From a virus: a stretch of 24,806 nt of DNA. Location of the stretch: IMG/VR virus record IMGVR_UViG_3300022927_000107, positions 1 to 24,806 of that record, one strand, 5' to 3'. Positions 1,341 through 18,096 of this stretch are shown here, in pieces. The first letter of the stretch is position 1. Every line of letters begins with the position of its first letter. The notes beneath the pieces are model-generated. The model was not told where the DNA came from and ran no database searches. It saw only the letters and a list, made by a program, of their open reading frames with translations. The translations under genes were made by a program, and so were the position numbers.

Positions 1341-2909
1341 CTAAAACATTATGAATGGCAACGGTTCAACGTCAACATCTGTGTGATCTGTCATGTTCTC
1401 GCCCAGATCCTTGTGGTACTGCTGTATCTGTTGCATCATTCTCACTGCCAATACTGTAGACATCACTAAGTCATCGTGCTCTCCCAACTTGGCTTGGTAA
1501 CTGGTTCCGGAGGCAACGAACTGCTTGAGCTCGCTGATCAGGGCCTTGCTCTGTATCTTGAGCCTGCCTGACTCTATCAGTGTCTTCATCTTGGCACAGG
1601 CCGCTATCTTGGTCTTGTTCGTGGTATTGAATCCCTTGCGGAAACGCCTTCCCTGTCCCGCTTTCTTGTCCTCTGACAGGAACAGTCCCTTGATGTTCTC
1701 CTCACCGTAGTCCGCTATCGATATCAGTGCGGCCTCGCCGATGGTGTTGTTCTCAACGGAGAAGTAGACATTGTTTGAGTCGACTCCCCTGTCAGCCAAG
1801 TGCTTGATTATGTCCGAGAACACCCTGGTCTGTTCAGGTATGGGAGTCTTGTTGTGTTTCCACTCTGCTAACTGCGTCATGGTAGTAGCATCAAACACTT
1901 CCATTGCGGCATAGTCTCCTCCCGTTCCTAGGCTTGGGTCCCAGGCCACGGTGTATATGTGATCGGGAACCACAGTGCCGTACCAACGAACCTGACCAGT
2001 CCTATCCGTGGGCTCTATGCCCACCATATCCATTAAGTATATGGGGTTGATCAATGTCTCGTCCACGTTGATGAACTCGCACTCCATCTCACGGCGGAAA
2101 CGTTCCTCGCCCAGTTTGGCACGTTCCTCGTCTGCCCACTTGTCGTCCCTGTCCGGATGTTCCTTCCAGTAACTCCTATAGGCCCTGAAGCCGTTTATTC
2201 CCAGTTCTGTCGTATTGCCGTTGACGTCTTCTGTCTTGTTCGCACCCTTCCATAACAGTGCGAACTGATCCTCATCACTGCTGGGTGTGGATGTTATTAT
2301 GGCCTTACCACCCGTTGCCAGTGTGGGTGATATCGAGGTCCAGAACTCCTTGGCTATGGTAGGTCTCACGAAAGCGAACTCGTCACAGTATAGCAACGAA
2401 ATGGACATACCTCGACCAGTGTTCTCAGTTGTGGTCGCCGAGACTATACGGCTTCCGTTGTCAAACTCTATGCTACCCTTGTTGTAACTGACGGCGCCTG
2501 CCCTGATGTGATCAGGACATTCCTCATAGGCATAACGTATGCGTTGCATGATCTCTTGTGCTCCGGAGAACTTGTGTGCGGCGATTAAGATAGTCGAATC
2601 AGGAACGAACATGGCATACCATAACAAGTAACCCGCGGCTGATGTTGACTTACCCGTCTGCCTAGGCATCATTGATATTGAATAGCGATAGTTGTGATAT
2701 GTGTCTATCAAGCGTTCTTGGTATTCATAGGGATCATACTTGATACCACCACGGGTAGGGTGCTGTATGTGAAAGAAATTCTCTAGAAAATATCTAGGAC
2801 CTGTTTTAGGATCAGCACACTTCTTGAACTCCTCTATCTGTTCAACAGTGTAGCTCATCTTCTTGTGAGCTTTTTTAATTAATACACCGTCTAATGATTT
2901 TTGTGCCAT
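1341..2909 (-). CDS. gp17: Large terminase subunit, DNA-packaging ATPase/nuclease (gp17)
   Basis: This is the packaging motor of T4-like phages, which docks on the portal, pumps DNA with its ATPase and cuts concatemers with its nuclease. At 522 residues it is shorter than T4 gp17 (610). The Walker A motif RQTGKST is at residues 83-89 and Walker B LLYCDE ends at D176/E177. A TST coupling motif lies at 207-209. The C-terminal RNase H-like nuclease domain shows D324 in VAWDPSLG, E386 in YFSVENN and D479/D480 in GEHDDL, matching the acidic triad of gp17. The start codon overlaps the stop of the 65-residue upstream gene (TAATG), implying translational coupling. The small subunit gp16 is not adjacent but about 6 kb away. 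Confidence 0.97.
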   Translation of the reverse strand: MAQKSLDGVLIKKAHKKMSYTVEQIEEFKKCADPKTGPRYFLENFFHIQHPTRGGIKYDPYEYQERLIDTYHNYRYSISMMPRQTGKSTSAAGYLLWYAMFVPDSTILIAAHKFSGAQEIMQRIRYAYEECPDHIRAGAVSYNKGSIEFDNGSRIVSATTTENTGRGMSISLLYCDEFAFVRPTIAKEFWTSISPTLATGGKAIITSTPSSDEDQFALLWKGANKTEDVNGNTTELGINGFRAYRSYWKEHPDRDDKWADEERAKLGEERFRREMECEFINVDETLINPIYLMDMVGIEPTDRTGQVRWYGTVVPDHIYTVAWDPSLGTGGDYAAMEVFDATTMTQLAEWKHNKTPIPEQTRVFSDIIKHLADRGVDSNNVYFSVENNTIGEAALISIADYGEENIKGLFLSEDKKAGQGRRFRKGFNTTNKTKIAACAKMKTLIESGRLKIQSKALISELKQFVASGTSYQAKLGEHDDLVMSTVLAVRMMQQIQQYHKDLGENMTDHTDVDVEPLPFIMF

Positions 2910-3106
2910 TACTTACCTTTGGGCATTGGGTTCTCACCTGTTAAGTGAGGTTGTGAAAACCACAACTGGAACCACTCTTTATCACCTGGTCTAATATTAT
3001 GTTTACGTTGATAGGCCGCTTTTTCAGATGCTGTATGAGATATGTTTTCTCCCATATCAGGTGTGTCTTTAACGCCTGCTAGCCTCTTTAAGTCTTTGAT
3101 GTCCAT
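2909..3106 (-). CDS. Small conserved protein coupled to the large terminase
   Basis: This 65-residue hydrophilic protein has no recognised domain. Its C-terminal half carries DKEWFQLWFSQPHLTGE, a Trp/Phe-rich stretch that I recall in short hypothetical proteins next to terminase genes of marine myoviruses. Its stop codon overlaps the gp17 start by one base, and a late-promoter-like GTTAAATA lies five bases before its ATG, inside the end of the methyltransferase gene. No Shine-Dalgarno is visible, so the transcript may start at the ATG. A role in packaging is inferred from this coupling only. It is not gp16, which is recognised elsewhere in the window. Confidence 0.8.
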   Translation of the reverse strand: MDIKDLKRLAGVKDTPDMGENISHTASEKAAYQRKHNIRPGDKEWFQLWFSQPHLTGENPMPKGK

Positions 3107-5535: not shown

Positions 5536-5667
5536 TTATTTAGGAACGCAGTTGTTGACCTTGACTCCGCCCTTCATCTTGGTGCCCTGTTTCTTGTAAC
5601 CCTTCCAGCACTTGGGATCTAGGCGTTGCTTGGTCTTCTTCTCGTTTACTACTTCTCTGATCTTCAT
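5536..5667 (-). CDS. 43-residue Lys-rich protein with an internal-protein-like N-terminus
   Basis: A small frame starts at ATG 5667, overlapping the stop of the thermonuclease gene by four bases (ATGA), and ends at TAA 5536-5538. It begins MKIREVVNE and continues with a very basic body (KKTKQR, GYKKQGTKMKGG) ending VNNCVPK, with two cysteines (20 and 40). Short proteins with a similar KGTKMKGGxxVNNCVP tail are familiar to me from marine phages, with no known function. The N-terminus resembles the capsid-targeting leaders of its operon neighbours, though VNE is a poor match to the (I/L)xE cleavage rule. The late promoter of the next gene lies just past its stop. Confidence 0.75.
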   Translation of the reverse strand: MKIREVVNEKKTKQRLDPKCWKGYKKQGTKMKGGVKVNNCVPK

Positions 5668-6137
5668 TTCTTCTCTCGTGCTTCCTTGATCACTGCCGCG
5701 TCATACTCTGCCCTGTCCACGACGTTCTCACGTAACAGTTTTTCCCTGTTGACTAGGTGTTTGGCTTGTATTTCTTCTTTTGATCCGCCAAAGTATGCAA
5801 CAGCGTGTCCTTCTTCAACGAGAATGTCCGTAACCATTCTTCCGTCGGGTGCAACGAAGTCACCTAGGATACGTCCAAATTTGCCTTTCATATCCTCTCC
5901 ATTTTTATTGATTTGTGTTTTAAGAATTGCTGTCTTTCCTAGCAGTGATTTTAATCTAGCCTTTGATGCTAAACCAAATACTTTCTCTACTTTATCACGT
6001 GTTCTTGATTCTGGTGTGTCAATGCCCATTATTCTTACACGCTCATCCTTTAACCAAACACCAAATCCTAAGTCTATATCCACGTCTACCGTGTCACCGT
6101 CAACGACTCTATTGACGTGAACTCTATACTCGTACAT
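5664..6137 (-). CDS. Staphylococcal-nuclease-like thermonuclease (SNase domain)
   Basis: The 157-residue product is a complete SNase-fold nuclease without a signal peptide. The calcium and catalytic residues of micrococcal nuclease are all present: VVDGDTV places D15 at the D21 position, RVRIMGIDTPES supplies R35, D40 and E43, and GKFGRILGDF supplies R89 for R87. Such enzymes cut DNA and RNA to short 3'-phosphate products using calcium. The gene sits between small head-interior-like genes, with a GGGGGG stretch acting as the only possible ribosome site, partly buried in an inverted repeat. Its AT-rich codon choice differs by eye from the flanking small genes, suggesting separate acquisition. 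Host DNA breakdown, or packaging for injection, are both possible and unproven. Confidence 0.93.
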   Translation of the reverse strand: MYEYRVHVNRVVDGDTVDVDIDLGFGVWLKDERVRIMGIDTPESRTRDKVEKVFGLASKARLKSLLGKTAILKTQINKNGEDMKGKFGRILGDFVAPDGRMVTDILVEEGHAVAYFGGSKEEIQAKHLVNREKLLRENVVDRAEYDAAVIKEAREKK

Positions 6138-6138
6138 C

Positions 6139-6154
6139 TTAACCCCCCGGTTAA
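6139..6154 (-). promoter_or_regulatory. Inverted repeat enclosing the ribosome site of the thermonuclease
   Basis: TTAACC and GGTTAA form a perfect 6-base inverted repeat with a four-base loop. On the minus strand the six Gs lie five bases before the ATG at 6137, so folding would hide the only Shine-Dalgarno candidate. Confidence 0.5.
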
Positions 6155-6166
6155 TGTTTTAAAAAT

Positions 6167-6295
6167 CTATTCTTCCCAGTCCTCGCAGTAGGTACATTCG
6201 CACTCGGTACATTCCCAACACTCCTGGCAACTCATGCCACAGTGTGCGTTGCACCCGCAGTTCTTACACCTTACTTGTTCTTTTTCCTCTGCCAT
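6167..6295 (-). CDS. 42-residue cysteine-rich, metallothionein-like protein
   Basis: The frame runs from ATG 6295 to TAG 6167-6169 and overlaps the end of the upstream gene by 25 bases in another frame. Ten of its 42 residues are cysteine (10, 13, 15, 19, 23, 26, 29, 32, 34 and 37), spaced mostly as CxC and CxxC, with one histidine (H18). The ends are acidic (MAEEKEQ and EDWEE). The spacing suggests binding of zinc or another soft metal, or a small disulfide or ferredoxin-like fold. I recognise no family. A real gene is likely because the cysteine pattern is non-random, and because it fills the gap between two coupled genes in the same operon. The ribosome site (AGAAAAAG-like) is weak. Confidence 0.7.
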   Translation of the reverse strand: MAEEKEQVRCKNCGCNAHCGMSCQECWECTECECTYCEDWEE

Positions 6296-6654
6296 TTTGC
6301 TCCCATCACTGGTGATTGCTTATTGGTATCTTCCATCTCTCCGGATGGTCCCTCTGCTTCTGGTTTTGTCTTGAGACCCATGGCCTTGTTCGCGGCATCA
6401 ATCATCTTGCGTTCTGCCTCTGTGTAGGCGCCCATGTATGGTCTGGTTGTTATGAATGCTTCTGTGTCTATGTCTGAATCGTCACCAGGGGCACGTGCCA
6501 TCAACATGCTGGCACGATACATGCCATAGTATCTGTCCATGTCTGCTGTATATGCTCCGGGAGTTGCCGCGGCGTGTTGCTTGTTCATCTTTCCGGGACG
6601 CTTGCCGCCCATGCCACCGTAAGGAGCCTCAGTTATGAAGTCCTTGGCACGCAT
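6271..6654 (-). CDS. Candidate head-interior protein with capsid-targeting leader (ITE/A)
   Basis: This 127-residue protein begins MRAKDFITE followed by APYGG. That fits the T4 prohead pattern, in which an amphipathic leader of about ten residues ends in (I/L)xE and is removed by the prohead protease. The rest is Met-, Gly- and Ala-rich and basic at the C-terminus (KWQRKKNK), with no recognised domain; the middle (YTEAERKMIDAANKAMG) looks helical. Its ATG overlaps the stop of the upstream gene (TAATG), and its last 25 bases overlap the cysteine-rich gene. Function is unknown; packaging in the capsid is inferred from the leader and neighbours. Confidence 0.8.
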   Translation of the reverse strand: MRAKDFITEAPYGGMGGKRPGKMNKQHAAATPGAYTADMDRYYGMYRASMLMARAPGDDSDIDTEAFITTRPYMGAYTEAERKMIDAANKAMGLKTKPEAEGPSGEMEDTNKQSPVMGAKWQRKKNK

Positions 6655-7157
6655 TAGTTGTTGACCTTTGCGCCTTTACGCCACTGGTAGCACGACCAGT
6701 ATTTTGCCTTGGTCTTGTCTTTCGCAGACGCCTTGTCACAGCCATGTCTGGCACGGAATGACTTACGTCTCTTTGGATCGTCTCTCTTGATTGATAGGTT
6801 GGGATCGCCAAAGCGTACAACTTTCACGTTGCCTGACTTGGGGTCCTTGACATATACCTTGAATTTTTTCTTTGGATTCTCTGAGGTCCTGATGGGATCA
6901 TTCAGTTTTACCTGTTTGCCCTGGTACTCTGCCTCGTCGAACACTGCGAACTCAACGCCTGGTTCAAACTGGCATCCGCAACTTTCAAGCATGGCCTGGC
7001 AGTCCTCATCCATGATCAATGTGATTGACTCGTCATCGTGTGATTCAACGATGGATTCGATCACCGTGTCTAGGTTAATGATGAAGTCAACATGGTCATC
7101 CGTTACTGGATTGGCATGGCTCCTCTCTGCTTCTGCTAGATACTTCTTGAAAGACAT
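6654..7157 (-). CDS. Candidate head-interior protein with a conserved C-terminal RHxC...YWSCxxW domain
   Basis: The 167-residue product starts MSFKKYLAE then AE, again a capsid-targeting-like leader with an LxE cleavage site after E9. Residues about 15-75 are acidic. Residues about 97-161 form a basic domain with FKVYVKDPKSGNVKVVRFGDP, RRKSFRARHGCDK and KYWSCYQW. This domain, with its conserved RHxC and YWSCxxW, recurs in many phages as a conserved hypothetical; H138, C140 and C156 might bind metal. The gene is coupled on both sides by TAATG overlaps. An internal or scaffold-associated head protein is the best guess; direct evidence is lacking. Confidence 0.85.
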   Translation of the reverse strand: MSFKKYLAEAERSHANPVTDDHVDFIINLDTVIESIVESHDDESITLIMDEDCQAMLESCGCQFEPGVEFAVFDEAEYQGKQVKLNDPIRTSENPKKKFKVYVKDPKSGNVKVVRFGDPNLSIKRDDPKRRKSFRARHGCDKASAKDKTKAKYWSCYQWRKGAKVNN

Positions 7158-8485
7158 TATTCAGAATCCTTATATTCCTTGTAAAGATCCATCATGCTCT
7201 CTGCTAGATCTTCTTCCTTTTCATGTAAGGGGAATGAGTTAGATTTTGCCGCTGACTTTGGCTTGGGTTCGTTAACGCCACCTGACATCTTGTTCAACTG
7301 TGTGTCAACGTCAGCAACTCGTTCTTTTGGAGTGTTGGAGTACTCGATCTCTCTTTCTTCCTCGACTGCCTCTTCCTCGCCCTCGTATTCCTTGTATCCA
7401 TCTGAACGCATGCCAGATAGTTTTAGTAGATTCTTGATCATGTCAACGTGATCACCGTTAGCACTGACGTTCACGTTCTCGTTACCTTGATCATCGATTG
7501 ACTGTGTCAATGTGACACCCTCATTCAACTGTTCTGTGTATTTCTTCTCGAAGTCTTCCATCATAGAGTCTAGGTTCAACTCCTCTGACTCCTTCTTGGG
7601 ACGTCCACGTTCTCTCTTAGGAGCATCTGGATCCACTAGTGGCTCTTCAGGTTCCAATGATTGAACTTTAACACCGCCTTGTGTATATTTGTAATGGCGT
7701 TTCTTGCCATCTTTGAATGTAACAGTAAAGCCTTGAGCACCATCTTCTGGACGATCCATTTGAACTTTGTGTCCTTCTTTCTCATGTTTGTCAACGATAC
7801 CTTTAACATGGGCAGGATCATATGCTTCGTCTAATTCAATTTCTTCTACTTCCTCAGAAACTTTTTCGTTCTTCTCATACTGCTCTGGAGTAGTGTCTTC
7901 TTCTTTCATATCTTCTTTATCTTTGGCCGCTTTCTTCATTGACTCTTCTTTGTCGCCATCCTTGTCCAAGTCTAGGAAGTCTGGTTTTGCTTCTTCGATC
8001 GTTTCCTCAACGCCTTCATACATCTGAACACTTTGGACTATTGCACCTTCGCCGCCTGCTGAGTAGTCTTCCTTATCTTCGCTCTGTAAGATATCATACG
8101 CCTTTGCTTCAGCTTCTTGTTTAGAGTTTGCTTCTACATCCATTTCATATGTAACAAGATCAGTGGCTTTTACAAACCATTCTGCTTCTGTTAACGCTTT
8201 TTCTTTTACTTCAACTGACTCGTTTGTAGTGTCAGGAGCATCTGTTTGAACATTTAATGTTTGGATACCTGCTAGTTTAGCATATTCTACAGGAGTTTCT
8301 TCTGCCACAGGTTGATATACGTCTTGACCTGTTGCCGAAACTTCTTGTGTTTGAGGCATTAGAGTATTGGTAGTCGCAGGGTTGGTAGGGTTGTTCATCT
8401 TCTCTGCGTTCTCAATGGCTCTTGCTTGATCCTCATTTGGGTTTTCAATTTGTTTTAATTTGTTTAATACGTCATACATTTCCAT
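7157..8485 (-). CDS. Acidic modular protein with multiple prohead-protease-like sites, candidate scaffold/core polyprotein
   Basis: The 442-residue product is very acidic and low in aromatic residues. It contains sites of the T4 prohead-protease form (I/L)xE followed by a small residue: LTE100/A, IEE165/A, LDE220/A, LNE322/G and LAE429/S, plus LHE422/K. Between them lie distinct modules: a possible small domain (101-165), a Lys/Glu segment with an EF-hand-like DLDKDGD loop (172-178), a compact FTVTFKDGKKRHYKY module with an AT-hook-like RERGRPKK (291-298), and a GVTLTQSIDDQGNENVNV module (323 onward) of a type I recall repeated in marine phage proteins. The ATG has an AGGAG ribosome site overlapping the upstream stop. 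A cleavable scaffold or internal polyprotein is inferred. Confidence 0.85.
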   Translation of the reverse strand: MEMYDVLNKLKQIENPNEDQARAIENAEKMNNPTNPATTNTLMPQTQEVSATGQDVYQPVAEETPVEYAKLAGIQTLNVQTDAPDTTNESVEVKEKALTEAEWFVKATDLVTYEMDVEANSKQEAEAKAYDILQSEDKEDYSAGGEGAIVQSVQMYEGVEETIEEAKPDFLDLDKDGDKEESMKKAAKDKEDMKEEDTTPEQYEKNEKVSEEVEEIELDEAYDPAHVKGIVDKHEKEGHKVQMDRPEDGAQGFTVTFKDGKKRHYKYTQGGVKVQSLEPEEPLVDPDAPKRERGRPKKESEELNLDSMMEDFEKKYTEQLNEGVTLTQSIDDQGNENVNVSANGDHVDMIKNLLKLSGMRSDGYKEYEGEEEAVEEEREIEYSNTPKERVADVDTQLNKMSGGVNEPKPKSAAKSNSFPLHEKEEDLAESMMDLYKEYKDSE

Positions 8486-8497
8486 GGTCTATGTCTC

Positions 8498-9082
8498 CTA
8501 TCTAGCAAACGACTTAACGTCTGGTAGTTTTGGTTTCACGCTACCCATGGCTGACTTATCACCCATCGGTAAATCATTTGTTGTCTGTGCCTTTGGTGTT
8601 TCTGGAGCCGCAAACTTGAATCTCGTTGTCTTTTCTGGTAGGGCGTGTGATGGATCAGCATAATCCTCACCTGCTTTCTTGGCTTCCGGGCAGTCCGGCA
8701 TGTCCTTCTCTAGGATCGGGCCTTCCTCTGGCTCGGAACCCTCGTTCTCTTCCCAGGATTTAGCGAAATGCTCGCTGACCACCTTGATCTGAGACTTGGG
8801 CTTGTTCGTGCATGCCTCAAGCATTTCATATAGTGCGTCAGCACTTGCTGGATATGCCATCTCAACGTCAAATGAGCAGACTTCCATGTTCTTGACGCCA
8901 GGAAAATCAGTTGGCTGTTCCATGACAGGTGTCGTCTTGGGTGAACTCATGTTCACTAGATCGAACTTGCCCAACTGTGATTCGAGTTCCTTCAGGCACT
9001 CTGCGTCACATCCACCAGCAACCTTGACCCTGTACTTGTAAGTCTGTTCTGCTTCTATTAAATATTCGTAATATGTTTTCAT
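8498..9082 (-). CDS. Head-interior-type protein with IPIII-like capsid-targeting leader
   Basis: The 194-residue product begins MKTYYEYLIE then A, closely resembling the T4 internal-protein leader MKTYQEFIAE, which directs IPIII into the prohead and is cleaved after (I/L)xE. A conserved region follows: YKYRVKVAGG, then KTTPVMEQPTDFPGVKNMEVCSFDVEMAYP, which I recall from hypothetical proteins in marine T4-like phages. The C-terminal third is Pro-, Lys- and Asp-rich and probably disordered. It is the first gene of the seven-gene operon ending at 5536. A consensus late promoter TATAAATA and a GGTAGGG ribosome site precede it. Delivery into the capsid is inferred; the mature function is unknown. 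Confidence 0.88.
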   Translation of the reverse strand: MKTYYEYLIEAEQTYKYRVKVAGGCDAECLKELESQLGKFDLVNMSSPKTTPVMEQPTDFPGVKNMEVCSFDVEMAYPASADALYEMLEACTNKPKSQIKVVSEHFAKSWEENEGSEPEEGPILEKDMPDCPEAKKAGEDYADPSHALPEKTTRFKFAAPETPKAQTTNDLPMGDKSAMGSVKPKLPDVKSFAR

Positions 9083-9103: not shown

Positions 9104-9111
9104 TATTTATA
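9104..9111 (-). promoter_or_regulatory. Consensus late promoter TATAAATA of the head-interior operon
   Basis: TATAAATA lies between the gp16 stop and the ATG at 9082, with a leader of about 16 bases carrying a purine-rich ribosome site. It is embedded in an inverted repeat, ACTGTA and TACAGT, with four bases between the arms. Confidence 0.8.
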
Positions 9112-17694: not shown

Positions 17695-18096
17695 TTATTT
17701 GCGTTTAGGTCCTTTTGGAGATATCTTCTTTAGGAAGGGTGTTTTTGGTTTGGCACGTTTTGACGTGGCCACTTTCTTTGGTTTCAGTGATTTCTTGAGT
17801 GCGTCCCTGCGTTTGAACTTGTTTAGAGCTTGCATTATACGACTTGCTACGTTTACCTTTTTGGTCCTTTTTGCCTTACGTGCCTGTCTAAACTTGGTCC
17901 TAGCACGTGTCTTTTTCATTTGAGCCCGTTTAGCAACATCGATATTTGCTCCACACTGGCTAGGAGTTGATACTAACCTACCTGCTCGGTTACCTGTCTC
18001 GCAACGCCATTTCATCTTGACCTTGGCCTTTCCGGTACCGCCCTTGCCCACACGGGCAAACACCATACCTTCAGTTATGATCTCGGATATCTTCAT
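17695..18096 (-). CDS. Very basic candidate DNA-binding internal protein with cleavable leader
   Basis: The 133-residue product begins MKISEIITE then G, a capsid-targeting-like leader with an ITE/G cleavage site. After cleavage about 124 residues rich in Lys and Arg remain. They include a conserved-looking KMKWRCETGNRAGRLVSTPSQCG segment (two cysteines), IDVAKRAQMKKTRARTKFRQARKAKRTKKVN in two halves, and a tail of KxxKPK repeats. I recall proteins with this WRC...PSQCGAxIDVxKR core in many marine phages, without function. The charge suggests binding packaged DNA, like the basic T4 internal proteins. Its ATG overlaps the stop of the gp13-like gene (TAATG), placing it in a late operon. Confidence 0.85.
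   Translation of the reverse strand: MKISEIITEGMVFARVGKGGTGKAKVKMKWRCETGNRAGRLVSTPSQCGANIDVAKRAQMKKTRARTKFRQARKAKRTKKVNVASRIMQALNKFKRRDALKKSLKPKKVATSKRAKPKTPFLKKISPKGPKRK

What the first reader, a model, noticed from the sequence alone, without database searches (positions are those of the whole stretch)
5536..9082. A seven-gene operon that looks like a head-interior cargo cassette
Three proteins of the operon begin with leaders ending (I/L)xE before A: MKTYYEYLIE/A (8498-9082), MSFKKYLAE/A (6654-7157) and MRAKDFITE/A (6271-6654). The first is close to the T4 IPIII capsid-targeting leader MKTYQEFIAE. A fourth, MKIREVVNE, is a looser match, and MKISEIITE/G occurs in the basic protein at 17695. 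All seven genes are coupled by overlaps or short spacing and follow one consensus late promoter. T4 internal proteins are injected with DNA and counter host defence, so the mature bodies here are candidates for injected effectors.
Basis: partly seen in the sequence, partly recalled or inferred. Interest (0 to 1): 0.75.

Follow-up and report, generated by a model that had tools for sequence, protein, structure and literature searches.

The report
Cleavable head-cargo leaders in marine phages
Several proteins of this uncultured T4-like phage start with a short, swappable leader that very probably sends them into the virus head and is then cut off at the same kind of site as the coat protein, so such leaders can be used to list proteins the virus may carry into its host.

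Summary
The window is a 24.8-kb fragment of an uncultured T4-like jumbo myovirus; its nearest isolates are PA5oct and MIJ3. Three cassette proteins (8498-9082, 6654-7157, 6271-6654) start with 9-10-residue leaders ending (L/I)xE|A. The weaker one (5536-5667) and the basic protein at 17695 belong with them.

The leader sites look functional. In 45 distinct leaders of the 8498 family the conserved positions include 4, 7, 8 and 10, those shown to matter in T4 IPIII. Relatives' coat proteins mature at the same site, (Y/H/F)LxE|(N/A/S). A model trained on these leaders ranks IPII, IPIII and gp24 among T4's top four. The second leader type, MRAxEF(I/L)xE, sits on 22 unlike bodies in viral contigs, and Lys at the cut position is at least six times rarer.

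"Seven-gene cargo cassette" is too broad. The 442-aa acidic protein, the SNase and the Cys-rich 42-mer have no leader. The 8498 protein is conserved, syntenic and acidic; its PA5oct homologue is in virions but lacks the cut-site Glu. It looks more like a permanent inner-head part than a variable effector. Injection and anti-defence roles remain untested.

The parts
9104..9111 (-). T4-type late promoter consensus TATAAATA, about 21 bp upstream of the first leader gene
   Evidence: exact match; 0.53 expected per window by shuffling, so supportive only
8498..9082 (-). 194-aa protein, leader MKTYYEYLIE|A then an acidic (pI 4.8) body with a predicted ferredoxin-like core; conserved head-interior candidate
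   Evidence: phrog_14802 virion structural protein in 36 of 40 members, phrog_2667 internal head protein in 11 of 40; PA5oct homologue EST35_0202 detected by ESI-MS/MS; AF2 model, fold matches
9053..9082 (-). leader MKTYYEYLIE of the 8498 protein; predicted cut after the codon ending at 9053
   Evidence: positions 4, 7, 8 and 10 conserved in 41, 43, 42 and 40 of 45 distinct leaders
7157..8485 (-). 442-aa acidic protein (pI 4.4), no leader; five internal (L/I)xE|(A/G/S) sites after residues 100, 165, 220, 322 and 429; candidate core or scaffold-like protease substrate
   Evidence: 5 sites vs 0.98 expected, reached in 0.15% of shuffles; homologues mostly 2-5 sites vs about 1 expected; next gene after the 8498 homologue in PA5oct (EST35_0203) is in virions
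6654..7157 (-). 167-aa protein, leader MSFKKYLAE|A; C-terminal domain of phrog_7595 / weak DUF5754
   Evidence: leader kept in homologues (MKTFKDYLAE|S, MKSLDEYLKE|A/T) or replaced with a different N-terminal part
7131..7157 (-). leader MSFKKYLAE of the 6654 protein
   Evidence: found by a model trained only on 8498 leaders, 0 of 7,162 decoys score as high
6271..6654 (-). 127-aa basic protein (mature pI 9.3), leader MRAKDFITE|A; commonest body found behind MRAxEFxxE leaders
   Evidence: no Pfam or PHROG match; leader Glu in 22 of 23 distinct leaders; 73-member body cluster
6628..6654 (-). leader MRAKDFITE of the 6271 protein
6167..6295 (-). 42-aa Cys-rich zinc-ribbon-like ORF, no leader
   Evidence: conserved next to 6271 in relatives
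5664..6137 (-). 157-aa SNase-domain nuclease, no leader
   Evidence: PF00565 E = 2.6e-12, phrog_452 endonuclease E = 2.4e-31
5536..5667 (-). 43-aa basic peptide (mature pI 10.3) with leader MKIREVVNE|K
   Evidence: family members carry MRAQEFITE|A (L307) and MRASDFITE|L (L012) before the same CWxGxxKxGxK body; 2 of 7,162 decoys score as high with a model trained on 17695 leaders
17695..18096 (-). 133-aa very basic protein (mature pI 12.0), leader MKISEIITE|G (18070-18096); outside the cassette but same leader class
   Evidence: homologues MKINEIIIE|G, MRFEEFVVE|A; MRA-leader relatives L225, L226, L265, L292

Best explanation
The leaders on the proteins at 8498, 6654, 6271, 5536 and 17695 are capsid-targeting propeptides of the T4 internal-protein type. 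Late in infection they bind the protein into the prohead core (aromatic/aliphatic residues at P7, P4 and P3). The phage's gp21-type S77 protease then cuts after the Glu, as it does on the coat protein, leaving the body free inside the DNA-filled head. From there some bodies can pass into the next host with the DNA. Shown by sequence: the leaders, their conservation, the matching coat-protein site, and their sharing among unlike bodies. Inferred: targeting, cleavage, virion residence and ejection. The 8498 protein is most likely a conserved inner-head component and the acidic 7157 protein a core substrate. The 6654, 6271, 5536 and 17695 bodies are better candidates for delivered or DNA-associated cargo.
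For: Conservation in homologues falls on positions 4, 7, 8 and 10 as well as Lys2; in IPIII positions 4 and 7 control targeting and 8 and 10 processing (PMC9026906). Coat proteins of relatives mature at KYLKE|NASAG, KHLAE|ASVAG, KYLAE|SASAG, NYLAE|AAGTG, RHLTE|AATAG and RFLVE|NASAG by alignment with T4, matching YLxE|(S/A/N). Relatives encode an S77 protease between gp68- and gp22-like genes. Census of 1,988 N-termini: 23 score >= 10 against 0 of 7,162 decoys. T4 control: top four of 258 ORFs are gp61.1, IPII, IPIII and gp24. The two PA5oct ORFs scoring >= 10 (EST35_0150, in the place of T4 gp67, and EST35_0238) are both flagged as MS-detected virion proteins; by my count of the tables about 93 of 443 CDS are flagged.
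Against: PA5oct EST35_0202 is in virions but its leader (MKSFRDYYDAS) lacks the cut-site Glu; Phosso lacks it too and L040/L041 have Asp, so cleavage is not universal in the 8498 family. P1' behind MRA leaders is nearly unrestricted, wider than at the 8498-type and coat sites. The fragment has no protease or coat gene, so the within-genome comparison rests on relatives. Mature 8498 is acidic whereas T4 IPs are basic. The late-promoter motif is not enriched before leader genes. There is no direct virion or N-terminal data for this phage.
Confidence: 0.82

Rival explanations
1. The leader is a core-binding or assembly tag only: it recruits proteins to the prohead, but cleavage is optional and the proteins are permanent structural or core parts, not injected cargo.
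For: The 8498 family is conserved, syntenic and found in virions in PA5oct although that leader has no Glu. In IPIII an Asp at position 10 blocks processing but not targeting, and L040/L041 have exactly that change (MKPYIQYLLD).
Against: The Glu is kept in 40 of 45 and 22 of 23 distinct leaders, the Lys control is depleted, and several bodies look like enzymes or regulators, which a purely structural tag would not predict.
Confidence: 0.3
2. The leader serves something else, for example an N-terminal amphipathic helix for membrane or tail attachment, or an element that favours translation start, with the LxE ending coincidental.
For: Two leader proteins run straight into Tat-like signal sequences, and leader helices are predicted.
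Against: Does not explain the match to the coat-protein cut site, the recovery of known gp21 substrates in T4, or the P1 Glu preference.
Confidence: 0.06
3. The similarity is chance or plain common descent of one gene family, so the leader carries no shared function.
For: The loose (hydrophobic)xE pattern is not enriched genome-wide, and its window P is 0.06.
Against: The same leader stands before 22 clusters of unlike bodies, and the trained model separates 23 N-termini from 0 of 7,162 decoys.
Confidence: 0.03

Closest known systems
T4 internal proteins IPI, IPII, IPIII and their capsid-targeting sequence (CTS)
   Same: 10-residue N-terminal leader, aromatic at 4 and 7, aliphatic at 8, Glu at 10, cut motif L/I-x-E; leader shared by unlike bodies
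   Different: bodies unrelated to T4 IPs; second leader class MRAxEF(I/L)xE with 9 residues and free P1'; the 8498 body is acidic and conserved across jumbo phages
T4 gp67, gp68 and gp22 prohead core proteins
   Same: the 7157 protein is acidic with several internal (L/I)xE sites, like these core substrates
   Different: not in the gp20-gp23 block (relatives have their own gp67, gp68 and gp22 there); no sequence match
T4 Alt (injected ADP-ribosyltransferase)
   Same: head-carried enzyme with a short cut propeptide; the analogous idea for leader-bearing kinase-like, hydrolase-like and nucleotidyltransferase-like bodies here
   Different: no Alt homologue found; Alt leader scores low in the model
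phrog_14802 (virion structural protein) and PA5oct EST35_0202
   Same: sequence family and gene order of the 8498 protein
   Different: the PA5oct leader lacks the P1 Glu
Ejection proteins of giant phages phiKZ and SPN3US
   Same: head-carried, protease-processed proteins delivered to the host
   Different: motif A-x-E (SPN3US) or S-x-E (phiKZ) and often propeptides over 100 residues (PMC5694885); unrelated proteins

Membership tests
T4-type CTS internal head protein | short N-terminal propeptide with targeting residues at 4 and 7 | tested here: met
   8498 family: F/Y at 4 in 41 of 45, Y at 7 in 43 of 45; the MRA class keeps F at P4 and L/I at P3 but has Ala at P7
T4-type CTS internal head protein | cut motif L/I-x-E at the leader end | tested here: met
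   L8 in 42 of 45 and E10 in 40 of 45; E9 in 22 of 23 for 6271; absent in the PA5oct and Phosso members
T4-type CTS internal head protein | gp21-like S77 protease whose coat-protein site matches | tested here: met
   in relatives only: PF03420 in 10 of 15 records, coat site (Y/H/F)LxE|(N/A/S) by alignment; the window fragment does not reach these genes
T4-type CTS internal head protein | same leader on unlike mature bodies | tested here: met
   22 body clusters behind MRAxEFxxE
T4-type CTS internal head protein | present in virions | tested here: inconclusive
   PA5oct homologue of 8498 and two PA5oct leader proteins are flagged ESI-MS/MS; nothing for the 6654, 6271, 5536 or 17695 proteins
T4-type CTS internal head protein | leader removed in the virion | not testable with these tools
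   needs N-terminal or semi-tryptic proteomics
T4-type CTS internal head protein | ejected into the host with DNA | not testable with these tools
   needs an infection experiment
T4-type CTS internal head protein | basic mature body | tested here: inconclusive
   pI 9.3 (6271), 10.3 (5536), 12.0 (17695) fit; 7.8 (6654) neutral; 4.8 (8498) does not
T4 IPI/IPII/IPIII protein families proper | homology of the mature body | tested here: not met
   only the first 45 residues of 8498 touch phrog_2667; no body match
gp22/gp67-type core substrate (for the 7157 protein) | acidic, several protease sites | tested here: met
   pI 4.4, 5 sites vs 0.98 expected
gp22/gp67-type core substrate (for the 7157 protein) | gene position in the gp20-gp23 block and sequence homology | tested here: not met
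   those genes exist separately in relatives; no family match

The most novel reading that the evidence does not exclude
T4-like jumbo phages of natural waters use two interchangeable leader types as a general head-export signal, resembling the end of their own coat protein's propeptide. Behind it they load a large, quickly changing set of unrelated proteins (kinase-like, peptidoglycan hydrolases, nucleotidyltransferase-like, basic DNA-binding-like proteins, coat-arm mimics) that are cut free in the head and delivered at infection, so the leader alone allows a catalogue of injected effectors in uncultured phages.
Probability: 0.45. Interest if true: 0.8.

Novelty: new variant of a known kind. 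Interest (0 to 1): 0.65.

Why it matters
Which proteins a phage carries in its head and delivers at infection is hard to learn without the virus in culture. If the leaders work as inferred, a 9-10-residue start that matches the coat-protein cut site flags head cargo directly in metagenomic contigs. That points at new families of early host-takeover or anti-defence proteins and extends the T4 CTS rule from T-even phages to distant jumbo phages. It also suggests a simple, testable route by which any gene can become virion cargo.

Tried and rejected
Loose (hydrophobic)xE census: no genome-wide enrichment; replaced by position-specific models with decoys. Late-promoter enrichment before leader genes: none (TAAATA in 29% vs 24%, P = 0.29). 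Function from structure: AF2 gives a ferredoxin-like core for 8498 (pTM 0.47) and a weak model for 6654 (pTM 0.46); PDB matches of 8498 are generic small alpha/beta folds (S6, PII, HPPK) and say nothing about function. PDB sequence searches were empty. PADLOC gave only a generic SNase match. Megablast against phages found nothing. Seven-gene cargo unit rejected because three genes have no leader. Atu_ph07 virion proteins could not be checked because the list is in a supplement.
Full report
WHAT THE WINDOW IS. The window is a whole IMG/VR record of 24,806 bases. Its terminase is 54% identical to that of Pseudomonas phages PA5oct/MIJ3, then Sinorhizobium phage Phosso and Agrobacterium phage Atu_ph07, so it belongs to the T4-like jumbo myoviruses. 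No near DNA match to the 4-12 kb stretch exists among phage records. Genes around the finding, on the minus strand, are sheath, two tube-like proteins, a head-closure TnsA-like protein (phrog_218), a coiled-coil protein, the seven genes of the finding, and on to terminase. The gene order around the 8498 protein is the same in PA5oct.

THE OBSERVATION. All coordinates, overlaps and leaders are as reported. The strict ending (L/I)xE|(A/G/S) at residues 9-12 occurs in 3 of 7 cassette genes and 4 of 31 window genes, against 0.9% of internal Met windows (P = 2e-5 and 1.5e-4). A looser pattern is not significantly enriched. A TATAAATA lies about 21 bp before the first gene.

LEADERS IN HOMOLOGUES. 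I collected relatives and read their starts. In the 8498 family (74 proteins, 45 distinct leaders) the consensus is M-K-x-F-x-x-Y-L-x-E|S. Positions 4, 7, 8 and 10 are kept in 41, 43, 42 and 40 of 45 (Lys2 in 41), while 3, 5, 6 and 9 vary. Work on T4 IPIII found targeting mainly at residues 4 and 7 and processing at 8 and 10, with Asp at 10 blocking processing but not targeting (PMC9026906). The match is position by position. L040/L041 carry Asp at 10. PA5oct (MKSFRDYYDAS) and Phosso (MKNFYEYLSSVK) have lost the Glu but keep most of the rest; the PA5oct protein is nevertheless flagged as found in virions by MS. The 6271 family has MRA-x-(E/D)-F-(L/I)-x-E, Glu in 22 of 23, followed by almost any residue.

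THE COAT PROTEIN IS CUT AT THE SAME SITE. The fragment lacks gp20-gp23, but relatives have the full block: portal, gp67-like, gp68-like, S77 protease, gp22-like, coat. Aligning coat proteins at the T4 maturation site (T4: SFLTE|AEIGG) gives KYLKE|NASAG, KHLAE|ASVAG, KYLAE|SASAG, NYLAE|AAGTG, RHLTE|AATAG and PA5oct RFLVE|NASAG. These share P4 aromatic/His, P3 Leu, P1 Glu and a small or polar P1' with the 8498-type leaders (YLTE|S, YLAE|S, YLVE|N). The sites were located by alignment, not measured.

A GENERAL CODE. Models trained on the leaders were run on 1,988 N-termini of six relatives and PA5oct: 23 score 10 or more, against 0 of 7,162 internal-Met decoys. Some training families are among the 23. 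Independent hits include clusters in G002 and G007, and PA5oct EST35_0150 (in the place of T4 gp67) and EST35_0238, both flagged MS-detected. About 93 of 443 PA5oct CDS carry that flag by my count, so two of two is modest evidence. On T4, which was not used for training, the top four of 258 called ORFs are gp61.1, IPII, IPIII and gp24, of which the last three are known gp21 substrates (PMC9026906). T4 IPI and Alt score low, so the model does not find every CTS. The ORFs fall into 22 body clusters, and 87 of 120 contigs hold other relatives of this phage group. The same pattern with Lys at P1 gave 20; several of those are internal, and those in the 6271 family mostly have an LxE three to four residues further on (QLSE, QLAE, DLKE).

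WHAT THE BODIES ARE. Behind MRA leaders: the 6271 family (the majority), 17695-like basic proteins, a DUF6267 protein (L241, E = 2e-32), SLT transglycosylase (L281, marginal), glycoside hydrolase 19 (L286, E = 5e-16), a protein matching the T7 gp0.7-type kinase profile (L196, E = 1.6e-4), and, by eye only, nucleotidyltransferase-like and zinc-peptidase-like proteins. This is what a delivery tag would look like, but no function was tested.

WITHIN THE CASSETTE. 8498: conserved, syntenic, acidic, predicted ferredoxin-like core; phrog_14802 'virion structural protein' in 36 of 40 members. I read it as an inner-head component. 7157: no leader, acidic, five internal cut sites vs 0.98 expected, a similar excess in homologues; core-substrate-like. 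6654 and 6271: leader plus variable body; absent from the PA5oct gene row, so accessory. 6167 and 5664 (SNase): no leader, so no sequence reason to place them in the head. 5536: small basic peptide with leader.

NOVELTY AND LIMITS. CTS-tagged internal proteins are known in T-even phages, including unlike bodies with CTS-like starts (PMC9026906). I found no description for this group in the held library, which lacks most subscription journals. New here are the second leader class, its free P1' and broad body range, and the match with the group's own coat site. Targeting, cutting, virion residence of the accessory proteins and injection are inferred.

Noticed in passing
T4 gp61.1 (L337:18966-19130 -); L279:3148-3342, L280:4174-4383: A small protein made of a capsid leader followed by a near copy of the mature coat-protein N-terminus. 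T4 gp61.1 MKTFKEFIKE|DMVAGDSGGNPENISIGTTSGAVVNKGP aligns with gp23 across its cut site (score 82, shuffle maximum 47 of 1000); marine L279 E|NASAGATGSGSIATV matches the coat protein E|NASAGSTVSGNIATL (68 vs 46). L167 (6222) is weaker and L209 not significant. No functional description found.
   Followed up: partly
L156 (G002 297068-297964), L167 (G007 162570-162968): Two leader proteins run straight into a Tat-like twin-arginine signal: MRISEIIVE|APTDVSRRGFLKGLASIAAS and MRAQELLVE|ITRRDFLRGAGAVAGSAALGSAQA. This would fit delivery into the host followed by export, or a signal peptide only.
   Followed up: no
L167 (G007 161989-172194), L153 (G002 232144-245081): Clusters of nearby leader-bearing ORFs with unlike bodies, separate from the window-type cassette.
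   Followed up: no
window 2909-3106 and 7157-8485; gp22-like proteins of G001, G002, G007, PA5oct: A short (R/K)LAG(L/I/V) motif ends the gp22-like scaffolds (RKLAGL, KRLAGLK, RRLAGIK) and recurs in the ORF before terminase (MDIKDLKRLAGVKD) and in the 7157 protein (EYAKLAGI); possibly a shared docking motif.
   Followed up: no
window 7157-8485, residues about 164-195: The stretch KPDFLDLDKDGDKEESMKKAAKDKE (EF-hand-like DxDxDG loop) is the best conserved part of the acidic protein across distant relatives and is what phrog_24078 matches.
   Followed up: no
L050, L054, L056, L059, L063, L064, L067, L069, L077: The C-terminal domain of the 6654 protein also occurs behind an unrelated N-terminal part (MRIGEITKDVIKES..., MLVREVLERP...), so the domain itself is swapped between contexts.
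   Followed up: no
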